Assembly: GCF_014905095.1 (NCBI RefSeq)
Contig: NZ_CP041165.1
Location: 496,001-560,000 of the forward strand
From: Sulfurimonas marina
Lineage (GTDB): Bacteria; Campylobacterota; Campylobacteria; Campylobacterales; Sulfurimonadaceae
Direction of reading: 5' to 3'
DNA length: 64,000 nt
Both the position numbers and the translations under genes were made by a program. Below, one piece after another: positions 28,077-46,553 of this stretch. Each line of letters starts with the position of its first letter. Within the stretch, counting starts at the first letter, position 1. Under the pieces are notes generated by a model. That model saw nothing but the letters and a program-made list of their open reading frames with translations, did not search any database and had not been told where the DNA came from.

Positions 28077-28463
28077 ATGTTGGCAATCCCTTTAGATAAT
28101 GAATTTAATACAAACATATCGGAGCTATACGGTCAAGCTCCGTATTTTGGACTGTTAAACCTAAACGACGGAGAACTTACAGTTATAAAAAACGAAGTGA
28201 ATGGTCAAGGGCCAAAAAGTGCAGGTTTCCTTGCAGCTTACGGTGTAAAAGCTACGGTTTTTTATCATATGGGTGAGGGTGTATATAACTCTTTTGTGGA
28301 CAGAGGCATGGATGTTTATACGACAGAACACACGAAAATGTCTTTAAATGAAATCTATGAAAAGTTCTTGAAAAAACAGCTTAACAAGTTAGACAGATTT
28401 AACTACAGAGAGAAGTTAGATCCGGGTAACGGCGGAGCTTGTCAATGTGGATGTGAGGGATAA
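28077..28463 (+). CDS. NifX/NifB-C fold protein
   Basis: 128 residues. The fold is the dinitrogenase iron-molybdenum cofactor domain: MLAIPLDNEFNTNISELYGQAPYFGL and AYGVKATVFYHMGEGVYNSF. The C-terminus ends with a Cys cluster (GGACQCGCEG). It probably binds or carries a cofactor precursor, or serves as a metal chaperone. It is the first gene of the operon. Confidence 0.85.
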   Translation: MLAIPLDNEFNTNISELYGQAPYFGLLNLNDGELTVIKNEVNGQGPKSAGFLAAYGVKATVFYHMGEGVYNSFVDRGMDVYTTEHTKMSLNEIYEKFLKKQLNKLDRFNYREKLDPGNGGACQCGCEG

Positions 28464-28464
28464 A

Positions 28465-29445
28465 ATGTCCGCAGAGATCAAAAGTTTAGATTACTATCTG
28501 AATTTAGAGTATCCCTTAGAGTGCTTTGCCGGTGAACATGAAGTTGGAGATGCTTACTTGGCGGAATATATTGATTTTGATATTAAGGCTGCAAGTGAGG
28601 ATTATGATGAAGCTATAGAGTTGGCAAAAGAGTATCTCAAAGAGCACATCATTAGAGAATACAATGCAAACAGAGCATTGCCAAAACCTGGAGAGGGGAG
28701 AAGATTTATGAAACATAGAGAAGCACTGAGTGCATATAAAGCAAAAGATTATGAAAGAGCGTTGTCATTGTGGGAAGAGGAGATCAAGTACAAAAATGAT
28801 CAGGCTATGACAAATTTGGGACTTATGTATCTTAAAGGTGAAGGTGTATCAAAAGACTTCGCTAAAGCACGCGAATACTTTGAGATGGCAAGCGAGTATG
28901 ACAATGATTCGGCTAACTACAATTTAGCACTTATGTATCAGACAAAACTCGGTGTTGAAGAGGATATGGAAAAAACCGTAGATTATTTCAGACGTGCAGT
29001 GAAAAAGAATCATCAAGGGGCTAACTTTAGACTAGGTCTTATGCTTTTAAAAGACAGAACTGATCTTGGAAAAGTAAAAGAGGGGTTTAACTGTATGTTA
29101 AATGCCGCAAAAACAAATCATCCTATGGCTTTGGCACAAATGGGCGGAGTTGATAAAACACCAAACAGCTCTTGTGAGCCAAATCTTGCTTTTAGAAACT
29201 CTCCTAAAGAGAAACAACTTGAATTGGTAATGGATGCGATCGACAGATACATCAGACCGATACTGGTAAAAGACGGCGGTGATATTACTCTTATTGACTA
29301 TATCAATGAGCCGGATATTGAGATCCGTTTAGCATATCAAGGGAACTGTGCCGGATGTTCTATGGCCTCAACTACAACATACGAGATCATCATGGGTACA
29401 CTTTCTCAAGTTATAGATGAAAACATTAGGGTGTATGTAATATGA
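28465..29445 (+). CDS. HicB-like / Sel1-repeat / NFU fusion protein
   Basis: 326 residues with three parts. Residues 8-62 (LDYYLNLEYPLECF ... YDEAIELAKEYLKEHI) resemble the HicB/UPF0150 fold. Residues about 85-230 form four Sel1-like repeats (NLGLMYLKGEGVSKDFAKAREYF and similar). Residues 250-326 are an NFU (NifU C-terminal) domain with the cluster motif NCAGC at C295 and C298. NFU domains carry Fe-S clusters to targets; Sel1 repeats bind proteins. The ATG at 28465 follows GAGGG. I know of no described protein with this domain order. Confidence 0.85.
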   Translation: MSAEIKSLDYYLNLEYPLECFAGEHEVGDAYLAEYIDFDIKAASEDYDEAIELAKEYLKEHIIREYNANRALPKPGEGRRFMKHREALSAYKAKDYERALSLWEEEIKYKNDQAMTNLGLMYLKGEGVSKDFAKAREYFEMASEYDNDSANYNLALMYQTKLGVEEDMEKTVDYFRRAVKKNHQGANFRLGLMLLKDRTDLGKVKEGFNCMLNAAKTNHPMALAQMGGVDKTPNSSCEPNLAFRNSPKEKQLELVMDAIDRYIRPILVKDGGDITLIDYINEPDIEIRLAYQGNCAGCSMASTTTYEIIMGTLSQVIDENIRVYVI

Positions 29446-29804
29446 TCAAAATCGCTTTTGCTTCAAAAGACGGGACTAATGTTAATGAACACTTTGGCTG
29501 GTGTGAAACATTTTATCTTTATGAGATTGATGAGAACAATGCAAACTTGCTCAAAGAGATAGATTCCTATCAAAAATACGAAGCTGAGGTGGATAAACTG
29601 GAGTACAAAATAGATTGTGTCAGTGAAGCAGATATGATCTATGTAACTCAGATAGGTCCCAAGGCTGCAAACATGGTAAAAATTGCAGGTATTTATCCTA
29701 TGAAAGCAGCGTCTGAGGAGGAAAAGATCGAAGATGTGGTCGCACAGCTTCAAAAAATGATAGCGAATCCTCCACTATGGTTAAAAAGGATACTTTTAAA
29801 ATGA
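29442..29804 (+). CDS. NifX-like cofactor-binding protein
   Basis: 120 residues. IKIAFASKDGTNVNEHFGWCETFYLYEI and IGPKAANMVKIAGIYPMKA match NifX, and the end NPPLWLKRILLK resembles the first NifX at 18608. It overlaps the previous gene by 4 bases (ATGA) and the next one likewise. Either this or the 18608 copy could be the functional NifX. Confidence 0.88.
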   Translation: MIKIAFASKDGTNVNEHFGWCETFYLYEIDENNANLLKEIDSYQKYEAEVDKLEYKIDCVSEADMIYVTQIGPKAANMVKIAGIYPMKAASEEEKIEDVVAQLQKMIANPPLWLKRILLK

Positions 29805-31021
29805 GTGAAGCGATCCAAGTTATAAAAGACCTTTATTATGTTGGTGTGAGTGATCCCGATATCCGTACATTTGATATCATTATGAAAACAGCCAACGGTA
29901 CAACTTATAATGCCTACCTTCTGAAAACTTCAGAGGGTGTAATTATCTTCGATACCGTAAAAGAAGAGTTCCAAGAGGAGTTTTTCAAAAAGATAGAATC
30001 TGTTTGTTCTTATAGTGATATCAAATACATAATTATGCACCATCTTGAGCCTGATCACAGTGGGGCACTTCCCGAACTTACACGACGTGCTCCGGGGGCC
30101 AAAGTATTTATCTCCCCTATGGCTCAGCCGATGCTAAAGTCGATCGCAAAAACAAAAGATATGGAGTTTGAAACGGTTTGGACAAATAAACAGCTAAAAC
30201 TCGGTAATAAAACAATTACTTTTTTAAGTACACCGAATCTTCACTGGCCTGAGACAATGAGCTCTTATCTTGAAGAAGATTGTGTACTTTTCAGTGGGGA
30301 TGTTTTTGGCTCACACTATTACGACAGTCGTATTTTTGATGATCTTGTTGGAGATTTTGATTATGCATTTAAATACTACTATGATCACATTATGCGTCCG
30401 TTTCGCTCCGATGTGGTAAAAGCACTTAAACTTTATGACAAGTTTGATATCTCGATCATCTGTAATCTGCACGGCCCGATTATGCGGGATAATCCTCAAA
30501 AATATATAGAGCGCTATAGAGAGTGGAGTGAGAAAGTTGACCGCCTCCACGGTAAAAAAATCATCTCGATTTTTTATGTAACAAGTTATAAAAATACAAA
30601 AGATATGGCTCAAAGTATTTTCGATGGAATAGAATCTGATACGAATTTAATAGCAAACATTTATGACCTGACTGCACTCGATGAGCAAAATATGCTTACG
30701 ATCTTAGAAGAGAGTACGGGAATACTTATCGGTGCTCCAACAATTAACGGAGATGCTCCAAAACCTGTCTGGGATCTGCTTAGCTGTATGATGCTTTTAG
30801 AGAAGAAAGGGAAGTTTGGCGGGTGTTTCGGTTCTTACGGATGGAGCGGAGAAGCGGTAGAGATGATACATCATCGTCTTGGAGCACTTAATTTTCGTCT
30901 TCCTCTACAACCGATGAAGATTAAGCTGATTCCTACAAAGGAGGAGCTGGTGGATTGTTTTGAGTTTGGAATTGAATTTGGACAAATCGTAAATGGAAAA
31001 ATGGTGGAGATGACATTATGA
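29801..31021 (+). CDS. Flavodiiron protein (A-type flavoprotein, FprA-like)
   Basis: 406 residues. The metallo-beta-lactamase-like diiron domain has HHLEPDHSGALPEL, and FSGDVFGSHY and CNLHGPI supply further ligands. The C-terminal half is flavodoxin-like (FYVTSYKNTKDMAQSI, GAPTINGDAPKP). Such enzymes reduce oxygen to water or NO to N2O. In this operon it is probably for oxygen protection of nitrogenase. Start and stop codons overlap both neighbours by 4 bases. Confidence 0.93.
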   Translation: MSEAIQVIKDLYYVGVSDPDIRTFDIIMKTANGTTYNAYLLKTSEGVIIFDTVKEEFQEEFFKKIESVCSYSDIKYIIMHHLEPDHSGALPELTRRAPGAKVFISPMAQPMLKSIAKTKDMEFETVWTNKQLKLGNKTITFLSTPNLHWPETMSSYLEEDCVLFSGDVFGSHYYDSRIFDDLVGDFDYAFKYYYDHIMRPFRSDVVKALKLYDKFDISIICNLHGPIMRDNPQKYIERYREWSEKVDRLHGKKIISIFYVTSYKNTKDMAQSIFDGIESDTNLIANIYDLTALDEQNMLTILEESTGILIGAPTINGDAPKPVWDLLSCMMLLEKKGKFGGCFGSYGWSGEAVEMIHHRLGALNFRLPLQPMKIKLIPTKEELVDCFEFGIEFGQIVNGKMVEMTL

Positions 31022-31347
31022 CACAAGCATATATGACGACAAACGAAGTTTTAGAGGCAAAGGTGAAACTGTTATTAGAGTTTTTTTCAATAGATGATTA
31101 TGCCAAACAGATTATAGCTCCCCGTGTGGCCAAGGCATCTTTGGAGATGAACCATCTTTACCAGGATCTCGGATTTGCTTCGAGGGTTGAGATGGGAAGA
31201 TTTATGAATCAGTATTTTCCGAGACTTAGTGTTATGAAACCAAAAGAGACATTATGGAAAAAGTACATTTACGATCTGATTAATGAGACGGCACCGGCAT
31301 GTGCCGAATGTGATGATCAAGAAACATGTTTCAAGTGTTTAATTTAA
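31018..31347 (+). CDS. nifQ: Short NifQ-like protein
   Basis: 109 residues. The segment HLYQDLGFASRVEMGRFMNQYFPRL followed by LWKKYIYDLI and APACAECDDQETCFKC matches the C-terminal half of NifQ, which supplies molybdenum for the cofactor. Classical NifQ is nearly twice as long and has a C-x4-C-x2-C-x5-C site; here the first Cys is missing and an extra Cys107 ends the motif (C95, C98, C104, C107). It overlaps the flavodiiron gene by 4 bases. Confidence 0.75.
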   Translation: MTQAYMTTNEVLEAKVKLLLEFFSIDDYAKQIIAPRVAKASLEMNHLYQDLGFASRVEMGRFMNQYFPRLSVMKPKETLWKKYIYDLINETAPACAECDDQETCFKCLI

Positions 31348-31358
31348 AAAAAGGATAA

Positions 31359-32570
<1,212 letters not shown>

Positions 32571-32715: not shown

Positions 32716-33699
32716 ATGATGGCAAAGGCAAGTTTAGTAGGCGGATCAATTTGGGATGAGTATAGTAATATTGTTGTAGATAGAATGAATAACCCTAAAC
32801 ACCAAGGGCATATTACTGAAGAGGAAGCTGAGGCGATGAATGCAACTTTGATCGTTGCAGACTTCGGAGCTGAGAGTTGTGGTGATGCGGTAAGACTTTA
32901 CTGGGCAGTTGAAAAAGATACGGACAAAATTGTAGGAAGTAAATTTAAAAGTTTTGGATGTGGTACTGCTATTGCGAGTTCTGACATTATGACTGAGCTT
33001 TGTATGGGTAAAACTGTTGATGAAGCGGTAAAAATTACAAATATCGATGTTGAAAAAGCGATGCGTGATACTCCAGATACTCCTGCTGTTCCACCGCAAA
33101 AGATGCACTGTTCTGTTATGGCGTATGATGTTATCAAAAAAGCGGCAGCTACGTACAAAGGTGTAGATGCTGAGAGTTTTGAAGAGGAGTTTATCATTTG
33201 TGAGTGTGCTCGTGTAACACAAGATACACTTATTGATGTAATTAAGATCAATGATCTTAAAACTATTGAGGAGATCATCGACTTTACAAAAGCGGGTGGT
33301 TTTTGTAAATCTTGTATAAAACCTGGCGGACATGAAGCAAAAGATATCTATCTAGAAGATATTTTAAAAGATACACGTGAAGAGATGGAACGTGAGCGTC
33401 TAACAGCTATGGCAAATGCTCCAAAAGAGGATAAAGCTGATTTCGCATCTATGAGTATGGTACAAAAAACACGTGCAATCGATGCTGTAGTTGAGGAGTA
33501 TGTACGCCCAATGCTTATCATGGACGGCGGAGATATGGAGCTTGTAGATATTAAAGAGGAGAACGGAAATTTTGACGTTTACATTAAATATCTCGGTGCA
33601 TGTTCAACATGTTCTACGGGAAGCACGGGTACATTGTATGCAATCGAGAGTACGCTAAAACAAAACCTTGATGATAGAATCAGAGTAATCACACTCTAA
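32716..33699 (+). CDS. nifU: Fe-S scaffold protein NifU
   Basis: 327 residues with all three NifU parts: IscU-like scaffold ([23 protein letters not shown] and MHCSVMA carry the Cys ligands), central 2Fe-2S domain (CECARVT ... GGFCKSCI) and NFU domain ([10 protein letters not shown]). It builds clusters with NifS for the nitrogenase proteins. Two ATG codons in a row start the frame; the first is listed. Confidence 0.96.
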
Positions 33700-36498: not shown

Positions 36499-36855
36499 AT
36501 GTTTGTATGTGGTTATCATTTTCCAGCAAGTGAAGGAAACGATGTTGCTTTCGATAAAGTTATTGAAAAAGTTGAAGACGGTACGTCTGCAGCAGGTAAA
36601 ACTGTTACATTAACTAGTGAAACTAGAGAGGGTGCTAAGTTAGAAGAATTAACTGTTCCAGAAGGTACTTTTGCTCACACTGCTTTTGTTGACTATTATG
36701 AAAATATCGCTGAAATGGAAGGCGAATTCAAAATGGTTTATTACACAAATAAATACCAAATCTCAGAGATTTCAAAATCTGTAGATGGTGATACAACTAA
36801 AGATCTTTGTAAAAAACTTGATGATATGAATCTTTACAGAGTTAAAGTAGCATAA
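36499..36855 (+). CDS. Unknown protein between nifH and nifD
   Basis: 118 residues, acidic, one or two cysteines (C4, and one near the C-terminus), no signal or membrane segment. I do not recognise a family. It has an AGGAG site and the same codon style as its neighbours, so it is real. It occupies the place where archaea and anaerobes keep nifI1/nifI2, but it shares no PII motif. Its position implies expression at nitrogenase levels and hence a role close to NifHDK. Confidence 0.8.
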   Translation: MFVCGYHFPASEGNDVAFDKVIEKVEDGTSAAGKTVTLTSETREGAKLEELTVPEGTFAHTAFVDYYENIAEMEGEFKMVYYTNKYQISEISKSVDGDTTKDLCKKLDDMNLYRVKVA

Positions 36856-43677: not shown

Positions 43678-45210
43678 ATGGATAATATGTTTGGACAATG
43701 TGAACAATGCTTAACGCACAAAGAATTAAAAGTACTCTATGATATAGCGTCATTGATCTCAGATTCAAGAGATATAAAAAAATCATTAGAAAAAAGTTTA
43801 TTGGCACTGAAGAACTCTTTGCAGTTAGAAAATTGTGTTATTTATAAACTTGATGATGAGAACTTAAGTGTGTTTGCTTCACTGGGATTTAGTAAATTTC
43901 AAAAAGTAAACTCTGAGTATAAACTCGGTGAGGGTGCAACCGGTCTTGCAGCAAAAAGTATGGAACCTGTTGTGATTGAAAATATTCACAACGACATACT
44001 TTTTTTGAACAAATCGGGAAATAAAACTAATCATACACTCTCATATATAGCTGTTCCTATGATAGCTGAAGATGATGTAATTGGTGTAATCGGTGCAAAC
44101 TTAACTAAAGATACAGAGATTGACTATGAAGCAACTATCCGTATCCTAACTATTATCAGCTCATTATTCGCACAGTATATAAACTCATATACTGTTGTAG
44201 AACAGGAAAAAGAAAGATTAAAAGAATTAAAACTATATTACAAAATGGAATGGGATTCAAAAGTGCACAATTTCGGTGACATAATCGGTGATTCTCCAAA
44301 GATGCAAACTGTGTATCAAGTGATCGAACGTATTGCACAAAGTGATGTGACTGTACTTGTACGCGGTGAAACGGGAACAGGTAAAGAACTCGTAGCAGCA
44401 GCTATACATAAACGTTCTAAGCGTGCAGAGGAACCGTTCATTAAACTAAACTGTGCAGCGATTACGGATACACTGTTAGAGAGTGAACTTTTCGGACATG
44501 AAAAGGGTGCATTTACCGATGCAAAAGAGACAAGAAAAGGGCGTTTCGAATTAGCTGACGGCGGGACACTTTTCTTAGATGAGATCGGGGATATCTCCGC
44601 ATCAGCTCAGGTAAAACTCTTACGTGTTCTTCAAGAGAGAGAGTTTGAGCGTGTAGGTGGTAGTAAAACTATTCGAGTAAACGTGCGTTTGGTGGCGGCT
44701 ACAAACAGGGACCTCGAACAGATGGTAAAAGATGGAGAGTTCAGAGAAGACCTCTACTATCGTTTAAATGTTATTCCGATCGACCTGCCGCCGCTTAGAA
44801 AACGTGGAGAAGATATTAAACTATTGGTGAATTTTTTCTTGGAACGCTCTATGAAAAATCACAAGAAAATAGTGAAAATTACAGACGAAGCTATGGAACA
44901 GTTAATGTCGTACCCTTGGCCGGGTAATGTTCGTGAACTGGAAAATACGATCGAGCGTATCGTACTTATGGGTAGTGAAGAGGGAATTACGGCAAGTGAT
45001 ATGATGCTTCTTCTTCCTGCACTTAACAATGAAAAACTCATAGGTGAGTATTGTCCGATGCCTACAGAAAATATGACTCTTGAAGAGATTGAAAAAGATG
45101 CACTTGTAAGAGCTTTGGAGAAAAGTGGCGGTAATCAAGCTGAAGCGGCAAAAGTGTTAGGACTGACACAAAGACAAATTGGATATAAGGTGAAAAAGTA
45201 TGGAATCTAG
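43678..45210 (+). CDS. nifA: NifA, sigma-54-dependent nif activator
   Basis: 510 residues. A short N-terminus with C5-x2-C8 leads into a GAF domain (to about 170), then the AAA+ domain (Walker A GETGTGKE) and a C-terminal Fis-type helix-turn-helix. The sigma-54 contact loop reads GAFTDA instead of GAFTGA. The cysteine series of oxygen-sensitive alpha-proteobacterial NifA is absent and no nifL is seen. The last 11 bases overlap the next gene, so NifA and the downstream proteins are made together. Confidence 0.93.
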   Translation: MDNMFGQCEQCLTHKELKVLYDIASLISDSRDIKKSLEKSLLALKNSLQLENCVIYKLDDENLSVFASLGFSKFQKVNSEYKLGEGATGLAAKSMEPVVIENIHNDILFLNKSGNKTNHTLSYIAVPMIAEDDVIGVIGANLTKDTEIDYEATIRILTIISSLFAQYINSYTVVEQEKERLKELKLYYKMEWDSKVHNFGDIIGDSPKMQTVYQVIERIAQSDVTVLVRGETGTGKELVAAAIHKRSKRAEEPFIKLNCAAITDTLLESELFGHEKGAFTDAKETRKGRFELADGGTLFLDEIGDISASAQVKLLRVLQEREFERVGGSKTIRVNVRLVAATNRDLEQMVKDGEFREDLYYRLNVIPIDLPPLRKRGEDIKLLVNFFLERSMKNHKKIVKITDEAMEQLMSYPWPGNVRELENTIERIVLMGSEEGITASDMMLLLPALNNEKLIGEYCPMPTENMTLEEIEKDALVRALEKSGGNQAEAAKVLGLTQRQIGYKVKKYGI

Positions 45211-45739
45211 TATAAATTATAAAGGTGAAAGTTTAGAGCTGTGTGAAGACTTTATAGATATAGGGTACATGGCTGAAAACATAGAGGTTACAGATAAGCA
45301 GGGGGAAACAAAAGAGATCAGAAGAAGTCATCCAGATCGTTCGATGACTCTTTTGATCTCTTTTCCAAACGCTTCTGATGATTTTATTGATGAGATTTTA
45401 AAAATTGACGAGCTGCTTAGTCATATCCAGGTACCTTTGCATTGTTACATGATCTTTGATAAAGAGTATAAGGAACAAACTCTTTTAAAAAACAGATTGA
45501 AAAAATTTGAAGTGGTTTTAGACACTGAAGATGAGTATGGAAACATGTACGGTACGAAACTTGTAAGTGGAACTCTAGCAGGTAAGTTAACTAAGTCTCT
45601 GTTTTTAATATCTAAAGACGGAGCTATTTTTTATCTTGATATGCCGAGTGACTTGGAAAAACCATTCGATCTAGAGAGACTAAGAATAGAGTTAAACAAA
45701 GCCTATACTAGCTACACTGGAGTAGGATGTCATGGATAA
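45200..45739 (+). CDS. Tpx-like thioredoxin-fold protein without peroxidatic Cys
   Basis: 179 residues with the Tpx/peroxiredoxin fold (KGESLEL ... IEVTDKQGETKEI, then MTLLISFPNASDDFIDEIL, then KSLFLISKDGAIFYLDM). In active Tpx the segment after the beta strand is SIDTPVC; here it is PNASDDF near residues 56-62, with no Cys. Three other Cys remain (C15, one near 82, one in the C-terminal GVGCHG). It probably senses or binds rather than reduces peroxide. It overlaps nifA by 11 and the SIR2-like gene by 8 bases. Confidence 0.75.
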   Translation: MESSINYKGESLELCEDFIDIGYMAENIEVTDKQGETKEIRRSHPDRSMTLLISFPNASDDFIDEILKIDELLSHIQVPLHCYMIFDKEYKEQTLLKNRLKKFEVVLDTEDEYGNMYGTKLVSGTLAGKLTKSLFLISKDGAIFYLDMPSDLEKPFDLERLRIELNKAYTSYTGVGCHG

Positions 45740-46553
45740 TGTCGTAGAAAAATTGAAAAGTGGGGAGCTTATTCCATTTATAGGATTAGGTGTTTTTGAA
45801 CATACAAAAGCTAAAGACGGAAGCGATTTGCCTTATGACAGTGACAGTATGATACTGGCACTTAATAACGGTCGTGCAATGAGCCCGAGACTGATGTACG
45901 AATACTCTCGTGCAGCTATGAGCTTGGAACAAAGAAAAGGGCGTGAGTTTATTGTTCAGATGACAAACCACATCTACGCTTCAAAAGAGTACGATCTTCC
46001 TTTCACGTACGAATATCTCAAAACTATACAGCCAAAATATATGATCGATACAAATGTAGATGACAGCGGATGTAAAGTGTATGAGGATGTCCCACACTTT
46101 ATGATTACGGGAGTCTCTCGTATTACGGCTGATTACGATAGATTTCTTATCTACAAATATGATCCGAAAACAAAAGAGTACACAAGAGTTGAAAAAGAGG
46201 AACTAGATGATTCTTTACCGATTCTTTTTAAACCTATGGGGTGTATGAAGCCGGAGATGAACTTTATCATCTCTGATGCAGATTTTGTTGACTGGTTGAC
46301 TGAAGCGATGGGCGGATATGCACTTCCACCGTTTCTAAAAGATTACAAAAAAGATAAATCATATCTGTTTTTAGGGGTGGATTTCTCACGTGACACTTTT
46401 AGAATGGTGGCACATGAAACTACTTTAGGATTAGATACAGGCCTGGTAGTTACACCGAAAGAGGAACTTACAAAAAAAGAGAACAAATTTGTAACTACAC
46501 ACAATCTTGAAGTATTACAACAAGATTGTGACACTTTTTTAAAGGCTTTATAA
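45732..46553 (+). CDS. SIR2-like (SIR2_2) NAD-binding domain protein
   Basis: 273 residues. LIPFIGLGVF (13-22) fits the NAD-binding G-x-G start of SIR2-like domains, LPILFKPMGCMKP (162-174) the K-x-H-G region, and YLFLGVDFSRDTFR (211-224) the late GxxxxDxxxR motif. The His expected near 169 is Met, so catalysis may be lost or altered. It lies between the Tpx-like gene and clpX with overlaps on both sides. NAD sensing or an adaptor role is an inference. Confidence 0.7.
   Translation: MDNVVEKLKSGELIPFIGLGVFEHTKAKDGSDLPYDSDSMILALNNGRAMSPRLMYEYSRAAMSLEQRKGREFIVQMTNHIYASKEYDLPFTYEYLKTIQPKYMIDTNVDDSGCKVYEDVPHFMITGVSRITADYDRFLIYKYDPKTKEYTRVEKEELDDSLPILFKPMGCMKPEMNFIISDADFVDWLTEAMGGYALPPFLKDYKKDKSYLFLGVDFSRDTFRMVAHETTLGLDTGLVVTPKEELTKKENKFVTTHNLEVLQQDCDTFLKAL

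What the first reader, a model, noticed from the sequence alone, without database searches (positions are those of the whole stretch)
28465..29445. HicB-like / Sel1 / NFU fusion in the nifS-nifU operon
One protein joins a HicB-like N-domain, four Sel1-type repeats and a NifU C-terminal Fe-S domain with NCAGC. A cluster carrier fused to a protein-binding repeat suggests a dedicated delivery factor for nitrogenase or its assembly proteins. I know of no described example.
Basis: partly seen in the sequence, partly recalled or inferred. Interest (0 to 1): 0.7.

Follow-up and report, generated by a model that had tools for sequence, protein, structure and literature searches.

The report
Antitoxin-domain-capped iron-sulfur carrier in nif cluster
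In nitrogen-fixing Campylobacterota (Sulfurimonas, Arcobacter, Sulfurovum and relatives), a conserved nitrogenase-cluster gene joins an iron-sulfur-carrier domain to a protein-docking repeat, and in about half of them to the front half of a HicB antitoxin, probably to deliver iron-sulfur clusters to nitrogenase assembly proteins.

Summary
Window 28465-29445 (+) encodes a 326-aa protein with a HicB-like N-domain (1-81), a Sel1/TPR-like solenoid (82-226) and a C-terminal NFU domain with CxxC. Pfam alone misses the HicB part, but stand-alone HicB antitoxins of the same phylum (PF15919; several beside hicA) reveal it: profile-profile probability 98%, E 4e-15. The AlphaFold N-domain model ranks HicB/UPF0150 structures first. 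The fusion is no artefact: type A caps occur in 17 of 397 sampled Campylobacterota genomes, a shorter type B in 9, and all parts are under purifying selection. The underlying Sel1-NFU gene occurs in 53 of 397 genomes, 52 of them NifK-positive, nearly always with nifX next or close downstream; CxxC is invariant in 59 aligned proteins. HicA is undetected in 22 of 26 capped genomes, so a working antitoxin is unlikely. Best reading: a nif-dedicated [4Fe-4S] carrier whose solenoid docks assembly clients and whose HicB-derived cap was gained (probably more than once) as an extra docking or dimerisation module. Cluster binding, clients and the cap's role are inferred. I found no description in the papers searched. 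New variant of a known kind (NFU carriers).

The parts
28465..29445 (+). HicB-like/Sel1/NFU fusion gene, 326 aa
   Evidence: open frame; Pfam Sel1 and NifU; Sel1-NFU homologues in 53 of 397 Campylobacterota genomes
28465..28707 (+). HicB-like N-domain, aa 1-81 (b-b-b-a)
   Evidence: hhalign 98.4%, E 4e-15 to stand-alone HicB antitoxins; PDB profile hits 6hpb, 6u0i, 5yrz; AF2 model and VIA-align ranks 1-5
28690..28710 (+). SD-like GGAGAGGGGAG, 7-nt spacer and in-frame ATG (codon 82): candidate internal start, same place as the start of N-domain-less homologues
   Evidence: codon resampling gives no proof of selection for the SD
28708..29142 (+). Sel1/TPR-like solenoid, aa 82-226
   Evidence: Pfam Sel1 E 3.9e-15; Foldseek 6ur7, 6ork, 1ouv
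29206..29442 (+). NFU domain, aa 248-326; CxxC codons 29347-29358
   Evidence: Pfam NifU E 1.6e-16; Cys295 and Cys298 invariant in 59 homologues
28077..28463 (+). NifX/NifB-type dinitrogenase Fe-Mo cofactor domain protein directly upstream
   Evidence: PF02579 E 3e-10
29442..29804 (+). nifX, overlapping the fusion gene by 4 bp; usual downstream partner
   Evidence: TIGR02663 E 1.8e-27 (just under the cut-off); synteny
29777..31021 (+). FprA-like flavodiiron protein
   Evidence: ODP and flavodoxin domains
31018..31347 (+). nifQ
   Evidence: PF04891 E 4e-18
31365..32570 (+). nifS-type cysteine desulfurase
   Evidence: PF00266 E 2e-82
32716..33699 (+). full-length NifU (IscU-like, BFD [2Fe-2S], NFU)
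   Evidence: three Pfam domains

Best explanation
The protein is a nif-dedicated [4Fe-4S] cluster carrier. Its NFU domain receives a cluster (most likely from full-length NifU, encoded further down the same gene string) on the CxxC cysteines of a dimer; the Sel1 superhelix docks client assembly proteins and brings them to the cluster. The most likely clients are on the FeMo-cofactor side (NifB, NifQ, NifEN/NifX), because nifX is its usual neighbour. In the window's lineage the N-terminal half of a HicB antitoxin, without its DNA-binding part, has been fused in front and most likely serves as an added docking or oligomerisation surface rather than as an antitoxin. An in-frame ATG with a ribosome-binding-like sequence at the junction may also allow the short, cap-less form to be made from the same gene. 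Shown here: domains, phylogenetic spread, synteny, co-occurrence with nif, Cys conservation, origin of the cap from HicB, purifying selection. Inferred: cluster binding, dimerisation, donor and clients, role of the cap, internal initiation.
For: NFU and Sel1 profiles pass cut-offs. Cys295/Gly297/Cys298 invariant in 59 homologues. 52 of 53 carriers are NifK-positive and 322 of 344 non-carriers NifK-negative. nifX is directly downstream (group 1) or follows after Mop-like and/or FdxN genes (group 2) in nearly all loci with enough sequence (exceptions L042, L062, L162). HicB relationship. HicA not found in 22 of 26 capped genomes including the window's. dN/dS of N-domain 0.02-0.26, Sel1 0.02-0.19, NFU 0.02-0.06. 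NifU supplies [4Fe-4S] clusters to NifH, NifB and NifQ in A. vinelandii (PMC11605450; PMC13128457).
Against: No experiment exists. 22 NifK-positive genomes (by the search threshold; two of these matches are weak or partial), mostly one Sulfurospirillaceae genus, lack the gene, so it is not indispensable. The cap is absent in half of the carriers and was apparently lost several times. Some lineages have lost most of the Sel1 region and keep NFU, so Sel1 docking is not essential everywhere either.
Confidence: 0.6

Rival explanations
1. The HicB cap is functionally neutral: Sel1-NFU does all the work and the cap is a tolerated in-frame fusion.
For: Half of the carriers lack it, including a same-genus relative (L171, 67% identical); several losses on the tree.
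Against: Purifying selection on the cap; retained across three families; a second, divergent type B fused at the same junction in other lineages.
Confidence: 0.2
2. Fe-S cluster store or repair factor that protects nitrogenase or its maturases from O2, NO or iron shortage, rather than an assembly-line carrier.
For: FprA-like flavodiiron protein in the same gene string; CowN, a CO-protection protein, adjacent in relatives; microaerophilic hosts (general knowledge).
Against: The usual neighbour is nifX, a cofactor carrier; the flavodiiron gene is not always adjacent.
Confidence: 0.12
3. Functional antitoxin: the HicB part binds a HicA toxin so that toxin release is coupled to Fe-S or nitrogen status.
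For: Homology to real HicB antitoxins with the HicA-facing helix alpha-1 retained (helix role from PMC10865869).
Against: No HicA profile match in 22 of 26 capped genomes, none in the window's genome; DNA-binding C-terminus replaced; no toxin-like neighbour.
Confidence: 0.04
4. Sensor or regulator: cluster occupancy of NFU modulates interaction with NifA or P-II rather than delivering clusters.
For: A solenoid plus an Fe-S domain could act as a scaffold; nifA-like and P-II genes are in the same cluster.
Against: Adjacent to assembly genes, not regulators; NFU CxxC sites in known proteins hold labile clusters for transfer (established knowledge).
Confidence: 0.04

Closest known systems
Full-length NifU (C-terminal NFU domain)
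   Same: NFU domain with CxxC; nif-linked; in the same gene string
   Different: No IscU-like scaffold and no [2Fe-2S] ferredoxin domain here; carries a Sel1 solenoid and a HicB-like cap instead
NfuA-type carriers
   Same: NFU domain attached to an N-terminal module (from general knowledge, a client-selecting one)
   Different: NfuA has a degenerate A-type (IscA-like) N-domain; here Sel1 with or without a HicB-like domain
HicB antitoxins with RHH domain (PF15919) of Campylobacterota
   Same: N-terminal b-b-b-a domain including the KKDLxYYxxLxY lead-in; about 30-35% identity to L237-L243
   Different: RHH DNA-binding part absent; no HicA partner in most genomes
Sel1-repeat assembly factors (e.g. 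COA7)
   Same: Sel1 solenoid, Foldseek hit 7mqz; a metalloprotein assembly role
   Different: COA7 has no NFU domain; the resemblance is of the repeat only
NifU-NifQ and NifB-NifX fusions
   Same: Fusions of cluster donor/carrier parts in nif assembly (PMC11605450)
   Different: There donor and client are fused; here a carrier is fused to docking modules

Membership tests
NFU-domain Fe-S carriers (PF01106) | NFU domain profile match | tested here: met
   E 1.6e-16, 60.6 bits against cut-off 27
NFU-domain Fe-S carriers (PF01106) | conserved CxxC | tested here: met
   Cys295 and Cys298 invariant in 59 sequences
NFU-domain Fe-S carriers (PF01106) | binds and transfers [4Fe-4S] as a dimer | not testable with these tools
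   needs biochemistry
NifU proper (TIGR02000) | IscU-like N-domain and central [2Fe-2S] domain | tested here: not met
   38 bits against cut-off 273; only the C-terminus matches
Sel1-like repeat proteins | Sel1 repeats by profile and alpha/alpha solenoid | tested here: met
   PF08238 56 bits, cut-off 30.7, two stretches; AF2 helix pairs; Foldseek 6ur7 E 7.5e-8
HicB antitoxins (PF15919) | N-terminal partial RNase H-like domain | tested here: met
   hhalign 98.4%, E 4e-15 to PF15919-matching stand-alone HicBs; structure Z 7.6 to 2dsy, 7.2 to 6hpb. Direct Pfam match of the window N-domain absent
HicB antitoxins (PF15919) | C-terminal DNA-binding domain (RHH/HTH), absent in some classes | tested here: not met
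   replaced by Sel1-NFU
HicB antitoxins (PF15919) | adjacent hicA toxin gene | tested here: not met
   neighbours are nif genes; no HicA match in the genome

The most novel reading that the evidence does not exclude
A toxin-antitoxin part has been repeatedly recruited as a client-selection or oligomerisation module of a nitrogenase-specific Fe-S carrier, and the gene encodes two products (capped and cap-less) through an internal start, so that the two forms serve different nif clients.
Probability: 0.2. Interest if true: 0.8.

Novelty: new variant of a known kind. Interest (0 to 1): 0.58.

Why it matters
How [4Fe-4S] clusters are routed from NifU to NifB, NifQ and NifH is an open part of nitrogenase assembly and a bottleneck in engineering nitrogen fixation. 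A nif gene that is widespread in one phylum and joins a cluster carrier to docking modules is a concrete, testable candidate for a routing factor. It also shows an antitoxin domain moved into metallocluster assembly, with natural capped and cap-less versions to compare.

Tried and rejected
Pfam and NCBIfam scans of the N-domain alone gave no significant family. A first hhalign against a mixed set of short HicB-like proteins was weak (probability 40) and was replaced by closer intermediates. Codon resampling to test whether the internal Shine-Dalgarno is kept beyond the protein's needs gave no support in type A (P 0.15-0.96) and at most a hint in type B (P 0.01-0.16 in genus g26, about 0.5 in g27). 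No sigma-54-like pattern above chance in the window. The plasmid search found no record with one place covering 80% of the protein; listed hits end within the Sel1 part or the linker behind it. The all-species scan found NFU-spanning matches only in Campylobacterota-type loci, but its patterns came from the Sel1 part, so distant versions elsewhere are not excluded; sampling of other phyla could not be started. A split-gene or frameshift origin of the fusion was rejected: only L042 is interrupted.

Full report
What is there. The window lies in a 2.26-Mb single-contig genome of the same genus as an assembly labelled Sulfurimonadaceae (G015 = L040), most likely Sulfurimonas. At 28465-29445 (+) an intact frame encodes 326 aa. 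It sits in a string of co-directional, mostly overlapping or abutting genes: a NifX-type protein (28077-28463), the fusion gene, nifX, an FprA-like flavodiiron protein, nifQ, nifS, nifU. Elsewhere in the window are nifN, nifW, nifZ, two ferredoxins, rpoN, nifE, nifHDK, a nifA-like activator and nifB (names without a scan are from reading the translations).

Domains. The C-terminus is an NFU domain (PF01106, E 1.6e-16) and the middle holds Sel1 repeats (PF08238, E 3.9e-15). AlphaFold2 from 59 homologues gives mean pLDDT 91 with b-b-b-a (18-67), helix pairs 81-216 and an a-b-b-a-b NFU fold. Foldseek finds Sel1 proteins for the middle part. C295, G297 and C298 are invariant in all 59.

The HicB question. 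Pfam does not see the N-domain in the window protein. A profile of N-domains against all PDB sequences returned three HicB antitoxins as its best hits, at weak E (0.02-0.5). A search of 397 genomes with the N-domain profile then found, besides the fusions, stand-alone proteins of mostly 100-145 aa at E down to 3e-13. All five of those scanned match PF15919 HicB_lk_antitox over the cut-off, and several have a HicA-like gene immediately upstream (PF07927 matches, one over and one under the cut-off). Type-A N-domains against ten of these proteins: hhalign probability 98.4, E 4e-15 over 74 columns, with the lead-in KKDLxYYxxLxY shared; the window N-domain alone, blastp E 2.6e-6 at an assumed database size of 600,000 letters. 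The ten were found with a profile of these same domains, so this is a chained search, but the two-way match and the single-sequence match stand on their own. The N-domain model aligns best with 2dsy, 6hpb, 6u0i, 6g1c and 6g1n, all HicB/UPF0150 (Z 7.6-6.3), above double-stranded-RNA-binding domains at 5.9 and below; Z of this size alone would not be proof.

Spread. Sel1-NFU homologues (E <= 1e-25) occur in 53 of 397 sampled Campylobacterota genomes after removing one Sel1-only match; NifK (E <= 1e-60) in 74; overlap 52 (Fisher P 3.5e-46; relatedness not corrected). NifK-positive genomes without it are mainly one Sulfurospirillaceae genus (assigned from named loci); two of the 22 have weak or partial NifK matches. 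In the loci read, nifX follows either directly (group 1) or after a Mop-like and/or FdxN gene (group 2); L042, L062 and L162 are exceptions, and a few loci end too early. The all-species scan gave no NFU-spanning match outside Campylobacterota-type loci, with the limits named under Tried and rejected.

Evolution of the cap. Type A (78 aa) is in 17 sampled genomes, type B (54-58 aa) in 9. On a quick maximum-likelihood tree of the Sel1-NFU part, caps need seven changes; starred branches force at least two changes for type B and four for type A. One gain of A followed by several losses, and two gains of B, is the simplest story, but an old fusion with many losses is not excluded because the root is only a midpoint. 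Short homologues grouped with a type-A carrier (L052, L053, L069 with L045) start exactly at the Met that is internal in the long forms; in L052 and L069 the DNA before that ATG (GGAGTAAGATTT or GGAGTACGATTT) is the same sequence that long forms read as the linker peptide EGVRF. So that ATG and its SD-like sequence appear to work as a start in those lineages, and internal initiation in long forms is plausible; codon resampling neither supports nor excludes it, and one long form (L045) has lost the ATG.

Is the cap functional? dN/dS of the N-domain is 0.02-0.26 in seven pairs (synonymous distances partly saturated), similar to or above the rest. HicA profile matches are absent in 22 of 26 capped genomes, including the window's; the control genomes rang, so the search works, though divergent HicAs could be missed. 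In HicAB complexes helix alpha-1 of HicB packs on HicA's sheet (PMC10865869); the same helix is kept here, so the cap may dock onto another protein. That is inference.

Mechanism proposed. NifU builds [4Fe-4S] clusters for NifH, NifB and NifQ (PMC11605450, PMC13128457). A stand-alone NFU domain on a docking solenoid next to nifX and often nifQ suggests a second-tier carrier between NifU and the FeMo-cofactor branch. Shown: architecture, conservation, nif linkage, HicB origin. Inferred: binding, donor, clients, dimerisation, cap role.

Literature. Searches for Sel1 with NifU or nitrogenase, for HicB with nitrogenase or iron-sulfur, and for Campylobacterota nif genes listed no paper whose title or abstract describes this gene. 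The library holds only open-licence papers, and a description elsewhere is not excluded. Two Sulfurimonas species with nif genes have been shown to fix 15N2 (PMC12029903), so the genus is experimentally usable.

Noticed in passing
window 28463-28465; L120, L121, L007, L008, L009: Relatives carry cowN (PF20543, E 2e-26 for L008) between the NifX-type gene and the fusion gene; the window shows a seamless junction and no CowN match in its genome, so the CO-protection gene cowN seems lost.
   Followed up: partly
window 36499-36852: ORF between nifH and nifD, found beside nifH/nifD in the other Campylobacterota nif clusters whose nifHD was read, with no Pfam or NCBIfam match; an unnamed nif-linked family.
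   Followed up: no
L163-L169: Lineages in which the Sel1 region has shrunk while NFU and its place near nifX remain.
   Followed up: no
L241:511-1211: HicB-type antitoxin next to a RelE/ParE-like ORF (read by eye) rather than HicA.
   Followed up: no
L042:5995-6966: One Arcobacter MAG has a single in-frame TAA inside the fusion gene; sequencing error or decay.
   Followed up: yes
G000:C1:2157644 and 224226 (L005, L006): The genome has a further NFU match in a 329-aa frame (probably a second NifU) and a small one in a 97-aa frame, so at least four NFU domains coexist.
   Followed up: no
window 45200-46553: Redoxin-like and SIR2_2-like genes directly after the nifA-like activator; homologues lie near a few other nif clusters.
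   Followed up: no
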